Positions 926 through 50,647 of a stretch of DNA of 64,000 nucleotides are shown one piece after another. The notes under the pieces are model-generated. The model did not search any database. It was not told the origin of the DNA and was given only the letters and a program-made list of their open reading frames with translations. The number at the start of each line of letters is the position of its first letter. Position 1 is the first letter of the stretch. The translations under genes were made by a program, and so were the position numbers. Origin of the DNA: an uncultured Opitutaceae bacterium (GTDB taxonomy: Bacteria > Verrucomicrobiota > Verrucomicrobiia > Opitutales > Opitutaceae); assembly GCA_951813085.1 (NCBI GenBank), contig OX638348.1, positions 62,001-126,000 of the forward strand, written 5' to 3'.

Positions 926-1436
926 GAGCGTGATTGTGTCCAAGCGGTATTGAATCATTTCGAGCGCATTGCGATATCGAAATATTCTTGAACTATGACG
1001 GGGGTTTTCGGACTCCGCCTGTAAATTTGGACAAATAGGCTCAATGACTCGGGTCCACCCGTAGATTGCGTAAGAGTGCGGGCGCTGTCGGGGCAACGTT
1101 CACTACCGTTCCCTGGATCCCTAGTGAATCACAGCGATGATCCTCGTCGCAGACCTCCCCGATAAGTCGGTGGCGGGAAGAGGTGAGGATATTGTTTTAG
1201 AACGGGTGGACAATCCCAAGCGCCCTCGAACCTATTTTCAGCTTTGCTGAAACCCATTTCCAGACACGGTCGGGAACGAGCGATCGCAGAGAGCGATGTT
1301 ATAAACTATATCGAACAACGCCTACGCTTGTCCCCTCCCGCTTCGCGTGACGGGAATGGGCGCCTATGCGAGGCGATCGGCATAGTTATCGGGGAATCCT
1401 GAACACAGCCACGGAGGGGGAGTGATGACTTCGCGA
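926..1436. other. Gene-less stretch holding repeat A1
   Basis: No credible gene lies between the porin start and the NHL-gene stop. The stretch contains repeat copy A1 (1224-1380). The flanks at about 1105-1223 and 1381-1430 also resemble the flanks of copy A2 (20780-20873 and 21031-21080), for example the shared words GCGATGATCCTCG and CTTTGCTGAAACCCATTTC. The duplicated block is therefore nearer 300 bp than 157 bp. Confidence 0.6.
1224..1380 (+). repeat. Structured dispersed repeat, type A, copy 1
   Basis: This is one of three 157-bp copies (others 20874-21030 and 21191-21347), diverged by scattered substitutions. It is built from consecutive small hairpins, including TTTCAGCTTTGCTGAAA near the left end and CGCCTATGCGAGGCG near the right end. 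Read on the minus strand it starts CCGATCGCCTCGCATAGGCG and then follows the same backbone as the type B repeats at 48-50 kb (GGCGCCCATTC, GACAAGCG, AACATCG). It encodes no protein. Confidence 0.85.
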
Positions 1437-16171: not shown

Positions 16172-16283
16172 GTGATTGATTCTCCTGTGTATAATTTTGT
16201 TTGCTTTAAAGGGTTTGAAGAGAGGTCTCTTCGTTTTGTCTGCACCTAGTAAACCATAGGAAGATTACAGAACTCTGGCGCCT

Positions 16284-16303
16284 ACATTACGCTTTTGTAA
16301 TGT
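16284..16303 (-). promoter_or_regulatory. Candidate operator upstream of EF-hand gene 1
   Basis: A perfect 7-bp inverted repeat, ACATTAC-N6-GTAATGT, is centred about 120 bases before the start codon. The same ATTAC-N6-GTAAT element sits at practically the same distance before the paralogous gene. A 5' UTR hairpin (GAAGAGAGGTCTCTTC, near 16217-16232) and the word CCTAGTAAACCA are also conserved between the two regions. The regulator is unknown. Confidence 0.5.
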
Positions 16304-16898: not shown

Positions 16899-17009
16899 TT
16901 TATGTAATTTCCTGTTGTTAATTTTTTAGTCTTTAAGGGTTTTGAAGAGAGGCTCTTCGTTGTGCTTGTCCCTAGTAAACCACGGGAAGATTACAGAATG
17001 CGCTCGGCC

Positions 17010-17029
17010 AAATTACGTGTTTGTAATTT
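17010..17029 (-). promoter_or_regulatory. Candidate operator upstream of EF-hand gene 2
   Basis: AATTAC (17011-17016) and GTAATT (17023-17028) form an inverted repeat with a 6-base spacer, about 114 bases before the start codon. It matches the element before the paralogous gene in arm sequence, spacer length and position. Confidence 0.5.
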
Positions 17030-20873: not shown

Positions 20874-21030
20874 CCTCGAGCCTATTTTCAGCTTTGCTGA
20901 AACCCATTTCCCGACGCAGTCGGGAACGAGCGAACGCAGAGAGCGATGTTAGAAACAATATTGAACAGCGCTTGCGCTTGTCCCTTCCCGCTACGCGTGA
21001 CGGGAATGGGCGCCTCTGCGAGGCGATGGG
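20874..21030 (+). repeat. Structured dispersed repeat, type A, copy 2
   Basis: 157 bp, very similar to copies at 1224 and 21191. Minus-strand reading: CCCATCGCCTCGCAGAGGCG, then CCCATTC, a CCCG...CGGG hairpin, GACAAGCGCAAGCGC, AACATCG, a CCCGACTGCGTCGGG hairpin and a TTTCAGCAAAGCTGAAA hairpin. Confidence 0.88.
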
Positions 21031-21190
21031 CTTAGTTATCTGGGATTGCTGAACGCGGCTTCGGAGGGTGAGTGATTTGAGGTCAGTATGAATATTGTTG
21101 GGACAATACTCTCTGCTAATCGCTTGATTCTAGGTAATTCCGAGCGAGTAGATGAGTCGGCCCTTCGAACTGATTGGCAATCCCAGCCAT

Positions 21191-21347
21191 CCTCGAACCT
21201 ATTTTCAGCTCCGCTGAAACCCATTTCCCGACGCAGTCGGGAACGAGCGAACGCAGAGAGCGATGTTAGAAACAATATTGAACAGCGCTTGCGCTTGCCC
21301 CTTCACGCTTCGCGTGACGGGAATGGGCGCCTCTGCGAGGCGATGGG
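21191..21347 (+). repeat. Structured dispersed repeat, type A, copy 3
   Basis: 157 bp, nearly identical to copy 2 (20874-21030) in the same orientation. Differences such as GCTCCGCTGAA versus GCTTTGCTGAA fall in hairpin loops. Confidence 0.88.
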
Positions 21348-21381
21348 TCTATGAGTCCATTGCCATCGAGGACTTCATTGC

Positions 21382-44930: not shown

Positions 44931-44989
44931 TGGTGGGTCCGGAGGGATTTGAACCCACGACCAACCCCGACTAGTCAGGGCTGCTCTAA
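44931..44989 (-). pseudogene. Partial tRNA (3' three quarters, 59 nt)
   Basis: The minus strand reads TTAGAGCAG, an altered anticodon arm with 18 instead of 17 bases (GCCCTGACTAGTCGGGGT), TGGTC, then the same T arm, acceptor 3' strand and CCA as the complete tRNA at 45244-45319; 34 bases of the 3' part differ by a single base. The 5' acceptor strand and most of the D arm are missing. The loop GACTAGTC lacks the usual U33 arrangement, so it cannot be a working tRNA. Confidence 0.75.
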
Positions 44990-45234
44990 GTTTCGTTCGC
45001 CAAAAACTCTATCGCCTTTGAAGGGTTCTTCCAGCGCTTGAGTTTAGCTTCGATCGATCGCGCCTCAGCTATCGAATCAAATTCGCAAGACGTGACTAGC
45101 TCCAGCGGCAAACCCAAGCGTTTTGTGGAGTAGACCCATCCAGAGTTGTGCCTTTCCAATCGCTTCTCAACATCCTGGCACGACCCAATATAGAAACGGC
45201 CAGATGTACCTTTTAGAATGTACACGTATCCCAT
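44986..45234 (-). CDS. GIY-YIG endonuclease-domain protein embedded in a tRNA cassette
   Basis: An 82-residue single-domain protein. The motif GYVYILKGTSGRFYIGSCQD has the GIY-YIG-type pair (VYI...YIG), followed by the catalytic Arg in VEKRLERHNSG and the Glu in EARSIEAKLKRWKNPSKA. This is the small UvrC-Intron-type (URI) family. The ATG lies nine bases after the CCA of the complete tRNA, with no Shine-Dalgarno. The TAG stop is supplied by the TTAGAGC of the partial tRNA copy downstream. The gene is thus exactly bracketed by tRNA sequence. A nicking or homing-like activity linked to the duplication is inferred, not shown. Confidence 0.85.
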   Translation of the reverse strand: MGYVYILKGTSGRFYIGSCQDVEKRLERHNSGWVYSTKRLGLPLELVTSCEFDSIAEARSIEAKLKRWKNPSKAIEFLANET

Positions 45235-45243
45235 CTGCAGAGT

Positions 45244-45320
<77 letters not shown>

Positions 45321-47958: not shown

Positions 47959-47969
47959 CCTGGCTCAAG

Positions 47970-48098
47970 CCTATCGCCCGGCCCGGGCGCCCATTCGCTC
48001 CGTAGGAGCGACAAGCGTGAGCGTTGTTAACATCGGCCTTCGGCCTAGTGCCCTCGCTGGGCGAGGCCAATGGGCGCCGCTGCGCGGCGATGGGTTTT
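47970..48098 (+). repeat. Structured repeat type B, copy 1
   Basis: 129 bp between the GH5 and folA stops. Hairpins in order: CGCCCGGCCCGGGCG, GCTCC-GTA-GGAGC, GGCC-TTC-GGCC, CCTCGC-TGG-GCGAGG and GCCGC-TGC-GCGGC. The ends carry an inverted repeat (CTATCGCC at the left, GGCGATGGG at the right). Confidence 0.9.
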
Positions 48099-48102
48099 GT
48101 TT

Positions 48103-48579
48103 CTACCTTTTTAGGTAGTGTTCTATCTGGAACTCGGCCTCGTTCCGGACGATTTCGTTTAGTTGGAATTGGTCTTCGAATTCGGGGAAAAAGGCATCGC
48201 CTTCTACCTCGCGCTTTAATCGAGTGAGAAGGAGTTCACTGCAATAGGGAAGGGCTTGGCGGTAGATTTCACCGCCGCCGCAGATCCAAACGGGGTCAGT
48301 ATAGTTTTGGGCGTGGATCGCTTCCAGGCTATCTAGAAGATCGACGCCTTCAGGCAAACTGGGTCGCGAGCGGCTGACGACGGCCGTTTTCCGTCCGGGC
48401 AGGGGACGGCCGATGCTATCCCAGGTTTTGCGGCCCATCACCAGGACGCCGCCCATGGTGGTTGCTTTGAACCATTTGAAGTCTTCCGACAGGCGCCAAG
48501 GAATCTCGTTTCCATTGCCGATGACGCGATTTTCGCTCATGGCGGCAATCGCTTTCCAAGGTCTAGGCTCGTGAGTCAT
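48103..48579 (-). CDS. folA: Dihydrofolate reductase
   Basis: A 158-residue enzyme with the DHFR pattern: WKAIAAMSENRVIGNGNEIPW with the catalytic-loop Asn/Gly, DFKWFKATTMGGVLVMGRKT, GRPLPGRKTAVVSR and WICGGGEIYRQALPY for NADPH binding. The Asp of the active site lies in LSEDFKWF. It reduces dihydrofolate to tetrahydrofolate, restoring the pool consumed by ThyA, whose gene ends 24 bases upstream on the same strand. The stop lies five bases from repeat B1, which may serve as its terminator. Confidence 0.95.
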   Translation of the reverse strand: MTHEPRPWKAIAAMSENRVIGNGNEIPWRLSEDFKWFKATTMGGVLVMGRKTWDSIGRPLPGRKTAVVSRSRPSLPEGVDLLDSLEAIHAQNYTDPVWICGGGEIYRQALPYCSELLLTRLKREVEGDAFFPEFEDQFQLNEIVRNEAEFQIEHYLKR

Positions 48580-48602
48580 GGGCGTGACGATTCCGTGCCT
48601 TG

Positions 48603-49403
48603 TTAAACGGAGATAGGCGCTTTGATGGTGGGGTGCGGGTCGTAGTCGAGCAGCTCGAAATCCTCGAAGGTGAAATCCGCGATATTTGTCTTGTCAGGAT
48701 TGATACGCATGGTTGGCAGCTCGCGGGGCTCGCGGGCGAGCTGCTGCTTGGCCTGATCGATATGGTTCTTGTAAAGGTGGAGATCCCCAAACGTGTGAAC
48801 GAACTCGCCCCCTTTCAAGCCGCAGGCTTGCGCGACCATGAGCGTGAGCAGGGCGTAGCTAGCGATGTTGAACGGGACGCCCAGGAACAGGTCCGCGCTG
48901 CGTTGATACAGCTGACAGGATAGCTCGCCGCGGTCGGTATCGACATAGAATTGAAACAGGCTGTGGCAAGGAGGGAGCGCCATGAGATGGAGCTCGCCGG
49001 GATTCCAGGCGCTGACCATCAGGCGTCGGCTGGTGGGGTTGTTCTTGATCTGCTCGATTACTTGTTCGATTTGGTTGAGGCTTCCGCCCTCGGGTGTTTT
49101 CCAGTCTGTCCATTGAGCGCCGTAGACGCGACCCAGATCGCCCTTCTCGTCCGCCCATTCGTCCCAGATGGTGACACGGTTGTCGTTGAGGTACTTGATG
49201 TTGGTATCGCCTTTGAGAAACCAAAGCAGCTCGTAGATGATAGATCGAAGATGGAGCTTCTTCGTGGTCAGGCAGGGGAAGCCATTGCGGAGATCGAATC
49301 GAGACTGCGCGCCGAATACAGAGTAGGTGCCGGTGCCGGTGCGATCGTCGCGATAGTGGCCGTTGTCGAGGACGTGCTGGAGCAGGTCGAGGTATTGCTT
49401 CAT
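48603..49403 (-). CDS. thyA: Thymidylate synthase
   Basis: A 266-residue enzyme of the classical ThyA type. The dUMP/folate-binding parts are [51 protein letters not shown], the catalytic Cys in [14 protein letters not shown], the [19 protein letters not shown] block and [20 protein letters not shown]. It makes dTMP from dUMP, using methylene-tetrahydrofolate. It forms a two-gene unit with folA. Length and all motifs are normal, and upstream lies repeat B2. Confidence 0.97.
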
Positions 49404-49466
49404 AGATTGTGACTGGAGTTTTTCCGCTCATTGCTCCGTCGTCGATGATAAAACAATGCCCAATTA

Positions 49467-49595
49467 CCTATCGCCCGGCACGGGCGCCCATTCGCTCCGC
49501 AGGAGCGACAAGCGTAAGCGTTGTTAACATCGGCCTTCGGCCTAGTGTCCTCGCTGCGCGAGGACAATGGGCACCGCTTCGCGGCGATGGGTTTT
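49467..49595 (+). repeat. Structured repeat type B, copy 2
   Basis: 129 bp upstream of thyA. Hairpins: CGCCCG-GCA-CGGGCG, GCTCC-GCA-GGAGC, GGCC-TTC-GGCC, CCTCGC-TGC-GCGAGG, CCGC-TTC-GCGG. It has the same orientation as copies 1, 3 and 4. Confidence 0.9.
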
Positions 49596-49681
49596 TGTTG
49601 CTGATTGTATTGGATGCTCGGTGAATCGAATTGCTGAATCTTTTTCTAGATCGAGACTTTGATCTCAATTACTTGGTCGAG

Positions 49682-49810
49682 CCTATCGCCCGGCCCGGGC
49701 GCCCATTCGCTCTGAAGGAGCGACAAGCGTAAGCGTTGTTAACATCGACCTTCGGCCTAGTGTCCTCGCTGCGCGAGGCCAATGGGCGCCGCTTTGCGGC
49801 GATGAGTTTT
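49682..49810 (+). repeat. Structured repeat type B, copy 3
   Basis: 129 bp, ending just before the GxxExxY gene. Hairpin 2 is GCTCT-GAA-GGAGC (a G-T pair replaces G-C), and the last is GCCGC-TTT-GCGGC. Differences from the other copies keep pairing or fall in loops. Confidence 0.9.
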
Positions 49811-49847
49811 GATTGATGCAATGGAGATTGGGATCCAGGTTCGATTG

Positions 49848-50222
49848 ATGGATACCAACCTGTTAGTTAAGAAGATTGTCCGCGTGTGCTATGATGTTCA
49901 AAGCGAGCTTGGATGCGGTTTTGTGGAAAAGGTCTATGAGCGGGCGCTTGCAATCGCTCTCTCTGAGGCGGGATTCGCTTTTGAAGTTCAGTATCCGATT
50001 GCGGTTTCTTTTAGAGGAAACGTAATTGGCGAATTCTATGCGGATCTACTTGTGGAGGGTAGGATAGTGGTAGAGCTGAAAGCGGTCTCCGCGATTGAAT
50101 CGATACACAAGGCTCAAATGATGAACTATCTCAAAGCGTCGGAATTGGAAACGGGAGTGTTGGTGAATTTCGGTTCACTAAAGCTTGAAATAAACCGGCT
50201 TTACAATCGGCACTTGAGTTAA
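49848..50222 (+). CDS. GxxExxY protein (PD-(D/E)XK nuclease-like)
   Basis: The ATG at 49848 (MDTNLLVKKIVRVCYDVQSE) gives the usual family N terminus; the frame is open from 49809 with an alternative ATG at 49821. The 124-residue product has the name-giving motif as GFVEKVYERAL, then the nuclease-like core GEFYADLLVEGRIVVELKAV (D...E-x-K pattern) and the C-terminal HKAQMMNYLKASELETGVLVN and FGSLKLEINRLY. The family is widespread, often near repeats, and has no proven function; nucleic-acid cleavage is inferred from the fold. It sits exactly between repeats B3 and B4. Confidence 0.85.
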   Translation: MDTNLLVKKIVRVCYDVQSELGCGFVEKVYERALAIALSEAGFAFEVQYPIAVSFRGNVIGEFYADLLVEGRIVVELKAVSAIESIHKAQMMNYLKASELETGVLVNFGSLKLEINRLYNRHLS

Positions 50223-50224
50223 AG

Positions 50225-50353
50225 CCCATCGCCCGGCACGGGCGCCTATTCGCTCCGTAGGAGCAACAAGCGTAAGCGTTGTTAACATCGGCCTTCGGCC
50301 TAGTGTCCTTGCTGCGCGAGGCCAATGGGCGCCGCTTCGCGGCGATAGGTTTT
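50225..50353 (+). repeat. Structured repeat type B, copy 4
   Basis: 129 bp between the GxxExxY gene and the S4 gene stop. Hairpins: CGCCCG-GCA-CGGGCG, GCTCC-GTA-GGAGC, GGCC-TTC-GGCC, CCTTGC-TGC-GCGAGG (one G-T pair), GCCGC-TTC-GCGGC. Confidence 0.9.
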
Positions 50354-50356
50354 GGC

Positions 50357-50590
50357 CTAAGAGCTCGGTCGGGTGACGGTGTAGGTTTCGCCTTGAAAAG
50401 CGATGGTGTCGTTAGCGACGATCTTGCGGCGCTTGCGGGTTTCCGTTTCGCCGTTCACCGTTACGAGTCCGTTGGCGATGACTTGCTTTGCCTCACCGCC
50501 GCTAGAGACGAGTCCTTCAAACTTTAGCAATTGGCAGAGCTCGATCACCTCGGATCGAATTTCAATAGTATGGGACTTGTCCGCTGTCAT
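50357..50590 (-). CDS. Small S4-domain RNA-binding protein
   Basis: The ATG at 50590 (MTADKSHTIEIRSEVIEL) is preferred; the frame is open to 50614. The 77-residue protein is almost entirely an S4 domain of the YbcJ/YaaA type: IELCQLLKFEGLVSSGGEAK, then QVIANGLVTVNGETETRKRR and KIVANDTIAF. Such proteins bind structured RNA, in some cases ribosomal, but have no fixed role. It lies four bases after repeat B4 at its 3' end and 58 bases downstream of the PDZ gene on the same strand. Confidence 0.85.
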   Translation of the reverse strand: MTADKSHTIEIRSEVIELCQLLKFEGLVSSGGEAKQVIANGLVTVNGETETRKRRKIVANDTIAFQGETYTVTRPSS

Positions 50591-50647
50591 AGTGCGGCAG
50601 AGAACAGCGTCCATCTGCAGGGCTGTCGATAGGAAAGGCGCTAGACG

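What the first reader, a model, noticed from the sequence alone, without database searches (positions are those of the whole stretch)
47970..50353. Four 129-bp structured repeats fill the intergenic spaces around folA, thyA, GxxExxY and S4 genes
Copies at 47970-48098, 49467-49595, 49682-49810 and 50225-50353 have identical length and orientation and occur nowhere else in the window. Each is a string of five or six hairpins flanked by an inverted repeat (CCCATCGCC ... GGCGATGGG). Differences between copies fall in loops (GTA/GCA/GAA; TGC/TTC/TTT) or turn G-C into G-T, so pairing is kept. This is seen directly. It resembles BIME/REPIN-type or MITE-type elements, but the sequence is not one I recognise.
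Basis: partly seen in the sequence, partly recalled or inferred. Interest (0 to 1): 0.75.

Follow-up and report, generated by a model that had tools for sequence, protein, structure and literature searches.

The report
Folding DNA repeats beside nuclease gene
Short DNA units that can fold into a fixed pattern of hairpins are scattered between genes in one group of marine bacteria, and in this window two of them enclose a small nuclease-like gene that may help them spread, which would be an unusual kind of mobile DNA.

Summary
The four 129-bp repeats are real, discrete and structured: 91-92% alike, with flanks only 20-28% alike. They belong to a larger family (108-186 bp) that a covariance model finds in 10 of 11 genomes of the genus. 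The own genome has at least 21 places, three more of them in this window. An exact-pattern scan of 84,980 species genomes hit only Opitutaceae/Opitutales MAGs (23 stretches).

Pairing is conserved with many compensatory changes, but G.T and A.C cells are about equally common (75 and 66), so the palindromes look kept as DNA, not as one RNA strand. No target-site duplication was detected. RAYT transposases of the genus rarely have this element nearby (1 of 30 loci); 18 of 22 analysed carry other repeats.

The window's GxxExxY gene (PD-(D/E)XK nuclease family) sits exactly between two copies; the same holds clearly in a second species and weakly in a third. GxxExxY genes often lie inside repeats (23 of 35 genus loci; 4 of 400 random segments), and those with hairpin-type repeats form one lineage (96/92).

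Best reading: miniature palindromic mobile elements moving as folded DNA, GxxExxY nucleases being candidate partners. Mobility and enzyme are inferred.

The parts
47968..48100 (+). copy 1, between a GH5-type gene (+) and folA (-)
   Evidence: R1 152.9 bits; DNA match
49465..49597 (+). copy 2, upstream of thyA
   Evidence: R1 152.8 bits
49680..49812 (+). copy 3, abutting the 5' end of the GxxExxY gene
   Evidence: R1 147.4 bits
50223..50355 (+). copy 4, abutting the stop codon of GxxExxY and the end of the S4 gene
   Evidence: R1 148.9 bits
49809..50222 (+). GxxExxY gene (TIGR04256 / PF13366 PDDEXK_3); D79, K91, Q103 and Y107 invariant in a 19-row alignment
20875..21032 (-). further family member, second subfamily (158 bp)
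   Evidence: R1 E 3.1e-14; direct repeat D2
21192..21349 (-). further family member, second subfamily
   Evidence: R1 E 1.6e-13
1225..1382 (-). further family member, second subfamily
   Evidence: R1 E 1.8e-11
48103..48579 (-). folA, dihydrofolate reductase (host gene; elements downstream of folA also in five relatives)
   Evidence: positions
48603..49403 (-). thyA, thymidylate synthase (host gene)
50357..50614 (-). S4-domain protein (host gene)

Best explanation
The repeats are miniature, non-coding mobile DNA elements of one marine Opitutaceae genus. Each is a fixed set of palindromes: an end stem (about ACCYAT/ATRGGT), a hairpin on each arm, an inner stem (CCYATT/AATRGG) and four inner hairpins, which together can fold into a four-way junction with a multi-branched tip. 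The unit is copied as a whole into mostly intergenic sites without detectable target duplication, and copies near each other are alike. The fold is most likely used as single-stranded or cruciform DNA. The proposed partner enzyme is the GxxExxY lineage whose genes lie between or inside such hairpin elements: a PD-(D/E)XK-family nuclease that would nick or cut the folded element or its target, with repair from another copy spreading the element and homogenising neighbours. Shown: discreteness, structure, covariation, no G.T/A.C bias, no target duplication, genus restriction at the sensitivity used, nuclease genes enclosed by repeats, hairpin-type repeats with one nuclease lineage. Inferred: mobility itself, the folded-DNA intermediate, nuclease activity and the role of GxxExxY. 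I hold 'mobile folded-DNA element' at about 0.8 and 'GxxExxY is its past or present partner' at about 0.4.
For: Discrete unit: window elements 91-92% alike, 60-bp flanks 20-28%; of 95 pairwise alignments of at least 110 bp, 60 begin within -5 to +2 and 60 end within -6 to +3 bases of the model ends (some of the rest being overlapping tandem neighbours). Structure: 44 pairs, 93.4% of cells paired against 33-44% when slid, 17 pairs with changes on both sides, 0 of 500 shuffles on four of five measures (9 sequences). At 62 genus places 2233 of 2514 ungapped cells are Watson-Crick, G.T 75, A.C 66 (alignment fitted to the model). No target duplication: mean match 3.13 against 3.27 shuffled, 62 places. 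Local clustering in the own genome: 16 of 21 places have a neighbour within 50 kb, p = 0.0012. GxxExxY: 23 of 35 genus loci have spanning direct or inverted repeats against 4 of 400 random segments and 0 of 10 thyA loci. Family elements lie on both sides of GxxExxY in the window and in G009:C70, weakly in G007:C386. The 10 of 42 tree rows with hairpin-type repeats form one side of a branch, 96/92, 0 of 500 shuffles; the two clearly family-flanked genes are sisters, 94/74. Two other genes of that lineage in the own genome lie in other hairpin elements that have further, mostly partial, copies.
Against: No insertion or excision was seen: species are too diverged (thyA DNA 79-82%) for empty-site comparison. 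Only 2 clear and 1 weak of 35 genus GxxExxY loci are enclosed by this family, and 12 of 35 show no spanning repeat by the test. Genomes with many matches (G001 26, G002 19, G004 19, both strands counted) have no hairpin-lineage GxxExxY among the genes placed in the tree (several fragments were not placed). The three genomes without any RAYT are the three with fewest matches (G006 0, G008 2, G010 3), which would suit a RAYT partner. One of five covariation measures, the number of further pair types, did not exceed shuffles (26 against 27.6, 430 of 500). Hairpin/inverted-repeat labels were given by eye. A gene carried inside an element would cluster with its element even without a role in movement. 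Catalytic activity of GxxExxY was not tested, and its fold could not be predicted here.
Confidence: 0.5

Rival explanations
1. RAYT-mobilised REP/REPIN-like elements: a Y1 HUH transposase of the host recognises the hairpins on single-stranded DNA.
For: Palindromic, dispersed, compensatory changes, no target duplication. RAYT-like genes in 8 of 11 genus genomes, and the three without have the fewest elements. A degraded RAYT lies about 170 bp from one copy (places).
Against: Family elements near only 1 of 30 RAYT loci, flanks up to 1.5 kb. 18 of 22 RAYT loci analysed have their own spanning repeats, several plainly GTAG-tagged (8 of 30 were left out because their loci are cut by contig ends). 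GTAG/CTAC within 8 nt of an end in 1 of 62 places.
Confidence: 0.2
2. MITEs of a classical DDE-transposase element that has been lost.
For: Short inverted ends, small size, dispersed, no coding capacity.
Against: No target duplication above shuffles in 62 places. Among 155 neighbouring proteins only three clusters of 3 or more appeared, the largest (28) being sulfatases (8 of 8 checked); none looked like a transposase, by eye. The conserved inner hairpin set is not explained by end recognition.
Confidence: 0.1
3. A structured RNA (regulatory leader, small RNA or terminator) selected at the RNA level near gene 3' ends.
For: Strong covariation. The left gene reads toward the element in 39 of 54 places (p = 0.0015). 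Elements occupy the folA-downstream spot in six species.
Against: G.T and A.C about equally frequent (75 and 66), where an RNA should prefer G.U. No Rfam match on the repeats. Contexts mixed: ++ 20, +- 19, -- 9, -+ 6. Hairpin sequences are replaced wholesale between subfamilies.
Confidence: 0.15
4. Old inert palindromes kept alike by ordinary gene conversion and palindrome-templated mutation, with no dedicated enzyme today.
For: Copies are more alike within own (91-92%) and within G001 (84%) than at matching positions between them (70-74%). Equal G.T and A.C fits mutation rather than selection. Many degenerate copies.
Against: Needs an earlier mobile phase to explain at least 21 dispersed places and abrupt ends. 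Does not explain nuclease genes enclosed by repeats.
Confidence: 0.25

Closest known systems
REPIN / REP elements with RAYT transposases (PMC3116915 and PMC3733652; found passages seen)
   Same: Short extragenic palindromic DNA, compensatory changes, dispersed, clusters, a single-protein enzyme gene flanked by the repeats
   Different: Five to six hairpins in a fixed cloverleaf-like order, 108-186 bp, no terminal GTAG tag, no RAYT association; the enclosed gene is of a PD-(D/E)XK family
TIRYT / TIRtron elements (PMC3733652, found passages)
   Same: Enzyme gene flanked by terminal inverted repeats that also exist as repeat families
   Different: TIRYT is an HUH tyrosine transposase; here the gene is GxxExxY
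23S rRNA intervening sequences with S23 protein (PMC4990558, start of abstract in the listing)
   Same: Small selfish insert carrying one small protein gene of unclear role; S23-like genes of this genus also often lie in inverted repeats (6 of 12 loci)
   Different: Not in rRNA; gene-less copies common; different protein
Integron attC sites (recalled)
   Same: Folded single-strand DNA sites of similar size between genes
   Different: attC core boxes not visible at the ends by eye; genes between copies not all in one orientation; integrase not searched

Membership tests
REP/REPIN | palindromic extragenic repeats with compensatory changes | tested here: met
   a few weaker places overlap ORFs of 300 aa or more
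REP/REPIN | terminal GTAG (or CGTC) tag | tested here: not met
   GTAG or CTAC within 8 nt of either end in 1 of 62 places; CGTC not counted; GTAG tags seen instead on several RAYT-flanking repeats
REP/REPIN | association with a RAYT gene | tested here: not met
   1 of 30 RAYT loci has a family element in its flanks of up to 1.5 kb; against this, element numbers are lowest in the three genomes without RAYT
MITE | terminal inverted repeats | tested here: met
   short and imperfect: helix 1, 88.9% of cells paired
MITE | target-site duplication | tested here: not met
   62 places, no excess over shuffled flanks
MITE | parent element with transposase and the same ends | tested here: inconclusive
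   no recurrent transposase seen among 155 neighbour proteins (by eye); GxxExxY between two copies is the only candidate parent
structured non-coding RNA | strand-specific pairing (G.U preferred over A.C) | tested here: not met
   75 against 66 cells
structured non-coding RNA | match to a described family | tested here: not met
   two hits, E 0.11 and 1.8, below gathering scores and neither on a repeat
integron attC | core boxes at the ends and an integrase | not tested
   boxes recalled and not visible by eye; integrase not searched
GxxExxY-bearing elements (proposed here) | GxxExxY gene enclosed by repeats that also occur without it | tested here: met
   for three of seven own-genome genes; repeats spanning the gene in 23 of 35 genus loci
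GxxExxY-bearing elements (proposed here) | the nuclease acts on the element | not testable with these tools
   needs biochemistry; single-sequence fold failed, mean pLDDT 30.5

The most novel reading that the evidence does not exclude
GxxExxY proteins are the enzymes of a widespread, undescribed class of mobile DNA. One lineage recognises multi-hairpin (four-way-junction-like) DNA elements, other lineages recognise inverted repeats built of roughly 11-nt units. Each spreads gene-bearing and gene-less miniature copies by cutting folded DNA or target and copying by repair, without a transposase of any known kind.
Probability: 0.3. Interest if true: 0.85.

Novelty: new variant of a known kind. 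Interest (0 to 1): 0.62.

Why it matters
GxxExxY (TIGR04256) is found in 28 of 38 genomes searched here, own included, yet in the held open-licence library two papers name it, once each, and one names its Pfam accession. If its genes are parts of mobile elements, a common 'unknown' protein family gains a testable role, and the small set of enzymes thought to move palindromic repeats gains a possible new member. The element family is also a natural set in which DNA-level and RNA-level constraint on hairpins can be told apart.

Tried and rejected
RNA reading: Rfam search empty on the repeats; G.T/A.C symmetry argues against it. RAYT reading: tested in own genome and genus; kept as a rival because of the presence/absence pattern. 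Target duplication: none. Recurrent neighbour gene: one large cluster, 28 of 155 proteins, sulfatases in 8 of 8 checked, probably because these genomes hold many; not tested against a background. First regex count of hairpins was badly designed and is not used. First GxxExxY tree contained four rows read on the wrong strand; corrected, where one row (L037, label N) was also dropped. Labels: of the seven B rows outside the own genome, six were labelled from printed flanks and one (L120) from model hits; L025, L027 and L030 were labelled A from printed flanks although the repeat test found nothing; L150, L153 and L160 were labelled A from an inverted repeat alone, and printing their flanks afterwards agreed; L035 is a doubtful A. 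Not every GxxExxY hit was labelled. The thyA control used wrong coordinates for one locus (L137) and was repeated correctly (0 of 10). Structure prediction of the window protein alone failed. A profile search of the PDB gave only non-significant hits, best 'Endonuclease I' (3cae; phage T7 resolvase, recalled) at E 1.1. Viral contigs: no pattern match and no relative of the protein. Family-level search with R1 hit only the own genome among 61, but it also missed G010 of the same genus, so that negative is weak. The pattern scan is better evidence, but the pattern covers only the commonest type of first hairpin and does not fit the four window copies themselves.

Full report
OBSERVATION. The four repeats lie at the stated coordinates, in one orientation. 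Copies 2-4 are 92-94% identical to copy 1, and these are the only full-length DNA matches in the own 4,852,771-base genome. All four fold better than shuffles (z -2.6 to -5.1 on the + strand). Outside the element the copies are unrelated: 91-92% identity inside against 20-28% in 60-bp flanks for all six pairs. The copied unit is therefore the element, not a larger duplication.

FAMILY. A covariance model (R1) was built from nine copies: the four window copies, two from G001, one each from G003 and G009, and one more from the own genome. At E up to 1e-4 the window and 40 fetched loci hold 62 distinct places, 108-186 bp long, and the own genome has at least 21. Three of these are a second subfamily inside this window, at 1225-1382, 20875-21032 and 21192-21349 on the minus strand, which a sequence-level view could not connect. 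An exact-pattern scan over 84,980 species genomes returned 23 stretches, all titled Opitutaceae or Opitutales MAGs; contig lengths of six of these records equal those of G001, G002, G003, G004, G007 and G009 contigs. Viral contigs gave none. A family-level R1 search of 61 genomes matched only the own genome, but it missed a genus member, so it is insensitive. By plain DNA similarity 8 of 38 relatives' genomes matched, all of the one genus.

STRUCTURE. The shared plan is an end stem, about ACCYAT/ATRGGT; hairpin 1; an inner stem, CCYATT/AATRGG; four inner hairpins, one of them the conserved ACAAGC...GCGUUGU; then hairpin 6. End stem, hairpin 1, inner stem and hairpin 6 meet with hardly any unpaired base, which is a four-way junction on paper. 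Over nine sequences 93.4% of cells pair, against 33-44% with partners slid, and 17 of 44 pairs show changes on both sides; four of five measures exceed all 500 shuffles, the fifth (further pair types) does not. In the window subfamily hairpins 1 and 6 can also pair with each other, which gives the long CCCATCGCC...GGCGATGGG repeat; in relatives such as G001 they differ and only the separate hairpins remain.

DNA OR RNA. If one RNA strand were selected, G.U should outnumber A.C. Over 62 places there are 75 G.T and 66 A.C cells, with 2233 Watson-Crick, 140 other and 214 gapped cells (the alignment is fitted to the model, which would if anything favour G.U). Among the four window copies it is 5 and 5. 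So the pairing is kept about symmetrically, as DNA palindromes. Palindrome-templated mutation could produce the same pattern without selection; I cannot separate the two.

BEHAVIOUR. Of 62 places, 54 had ORFs within 600 bp on both sides; strands relative to the element were ++ 20, +- 19, -- 9 and -+ 6, that is, the left gene reads toward the element in 39 of 54 (p = 0.0015). In the own genome 16 of 21 places have a neighbour within 50 kb, against 7.1 expected (p = 0.0012; 13 of 18 and p = 0.0018 without three of the window copies), and 9 of 12 such neighbour pairs share orientation. No target-site duplication exceeds shuffled flanks. The folA-thyA-S4 neighbourhood is shared by 10 genomes (the 11th, G007, has thyA cut by a contig end). 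Elements lie downstream of folA in own, G001, G003, G005, G006 and G010 (some weak, E up to 0.004; G009 only E 0.14); between thyA and S4 in own, G001 and G008; on the far side of S4 in G004; none was found in G002. Yet own copies resemble each other (91-92%) more than the G001 copies at matching spots (70-74%), and the two G001 copies are 84% alike: local copying or homogenisation.

THE NUCLEASE. Copies 3 and 4 enclose a GxxExxY gene within a few bases on both sides. The protein scores 133 bits on TIGR04256 and 132 bits on PF13366; D79, K91, Q103 and Y107 are invariant in the 19-row alignment. The own genome has seven such genes. One (L017) lies between two 147-bp copies, 99% alike, of a different hairpin-string repeat, with a third copy (82%) nearby and six partial matches elsewhere; another (L018) is inside a split hairpin element with nine partial matches elsewhere; the other four lie inside inverted repeats of short tandem units. 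Over the genus, 23 of 35 GxxExxY loci, damaged ones included, have spanning repeats at E below 1e-3 within 400 bp (8 direct, 20 inverted, some both), against 4 of 400 random segments drawn from repeat-rich loci and 0 of 10 thyA loci. Family R1 elements enclose the gene in the window and in G009:C70, and weakly in G007:C386 (E 2e-5 and 1.4e-3); one lies on one side in G009:C15. In a tree of 42 proteins the 10 with hairpin-type flanks are one side of a branch (96/92; 0 of 500 shuffles), and the window and G009:C70 genes are sisters (94/74). Labels were given by eye before the tree; Tried and rejected lists the doubtful ones.

RIVAL ENZYME. RAYT-like genes occur in 8 of 11 genus genomes. The three without them (G006, G008, G010) have the fewest elements, which speaks for RAYT. 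But only 1 of 30 RAYT loci, a degraded one, has a family element in flanks of up to 1.5 kb, and 18 of 22 analysed loci carry other spanning repeats, several with plain GTAG tags. Against GxxExxY, G001, G002 and G004 hold many elements without a hairpin-lineage gene among those placed in the tree.

LITERATURE. 'GxxExxY' occurs once each in two papers of the held library (listing only), and PF13366 in one (listing only). The REP/RAYT comparison rests on found passages of PMC3733652 and PMC3116915. I saw no description of this element family in the listings of searches; that covers only the open-licence library.

VERDICT. A real family of folded DNA elements, restricted to one genus as far as tested, best read as miniature mobile DNA, enclosing a nuclease-family gene whose wider habit of sitting inside repeats is the more interesting result. 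Mobility and enzyme are inferred.

Noticed in passing
window 44931-45319: A small GIY-YIG gene (44986-45234, minus strand) lies directly downstream of tRNA-Met (45244-45319, minus), and a 34-nt copy of the tRNA 3' end follows it (44931-44964): looks like a tiny tRNA-targeted insert.
   Followed up: partly
L019-L021, L026, L028, L040-L043, L045, L046, L051, L052, L150, L153, L160: Many GxxExxY genes of the wider family and order lie some tens of bp inside inverted repeats made of roughly 11-nt units (ACCACGGATG-type); L047 and L023 have direct copies of what look like gene-less palindromes of that type beside the gene.
   Followed up: partly
L169-L180: S23 / 23S-IVP-like genes of the genus also often sit in inverted repeats of short units: 6 of 12 loci (L169 was cut by a contig end and misplaced in that test).
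   Followed up: partly
L118 15065-15177 and following: A family copy appears interrupted by another sequence after GTTGTTAAAATC and resumes near AACATCG: possible nested insertion.
   Followed up: no
L211, L208, L226, L056: RAYT genes of the genus are flanked by GTAG-tagged palindromes (GTAGCTCA...-type), a separate REP-like system in the same genomes.
   Followed up: partly
window 16196-16301 and 16922-17027: Another direct repeat pair, 106 nt, 72% identical.
   Followed up: no
L131, L132, L133 (G010, G003, G006): Downstream of folA two degenerate tandem elements are alike in three species (86-99% for the a copies, 88-91% for the b copies), so some insertions are old.
   Followed up: yes
loci L088-L101: Neighbours of the elements include many sulfatase genes (one cluster of 28 of 155 neighbour proteins; 8 of 8 checked are PF00884).
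   Followed up: partly
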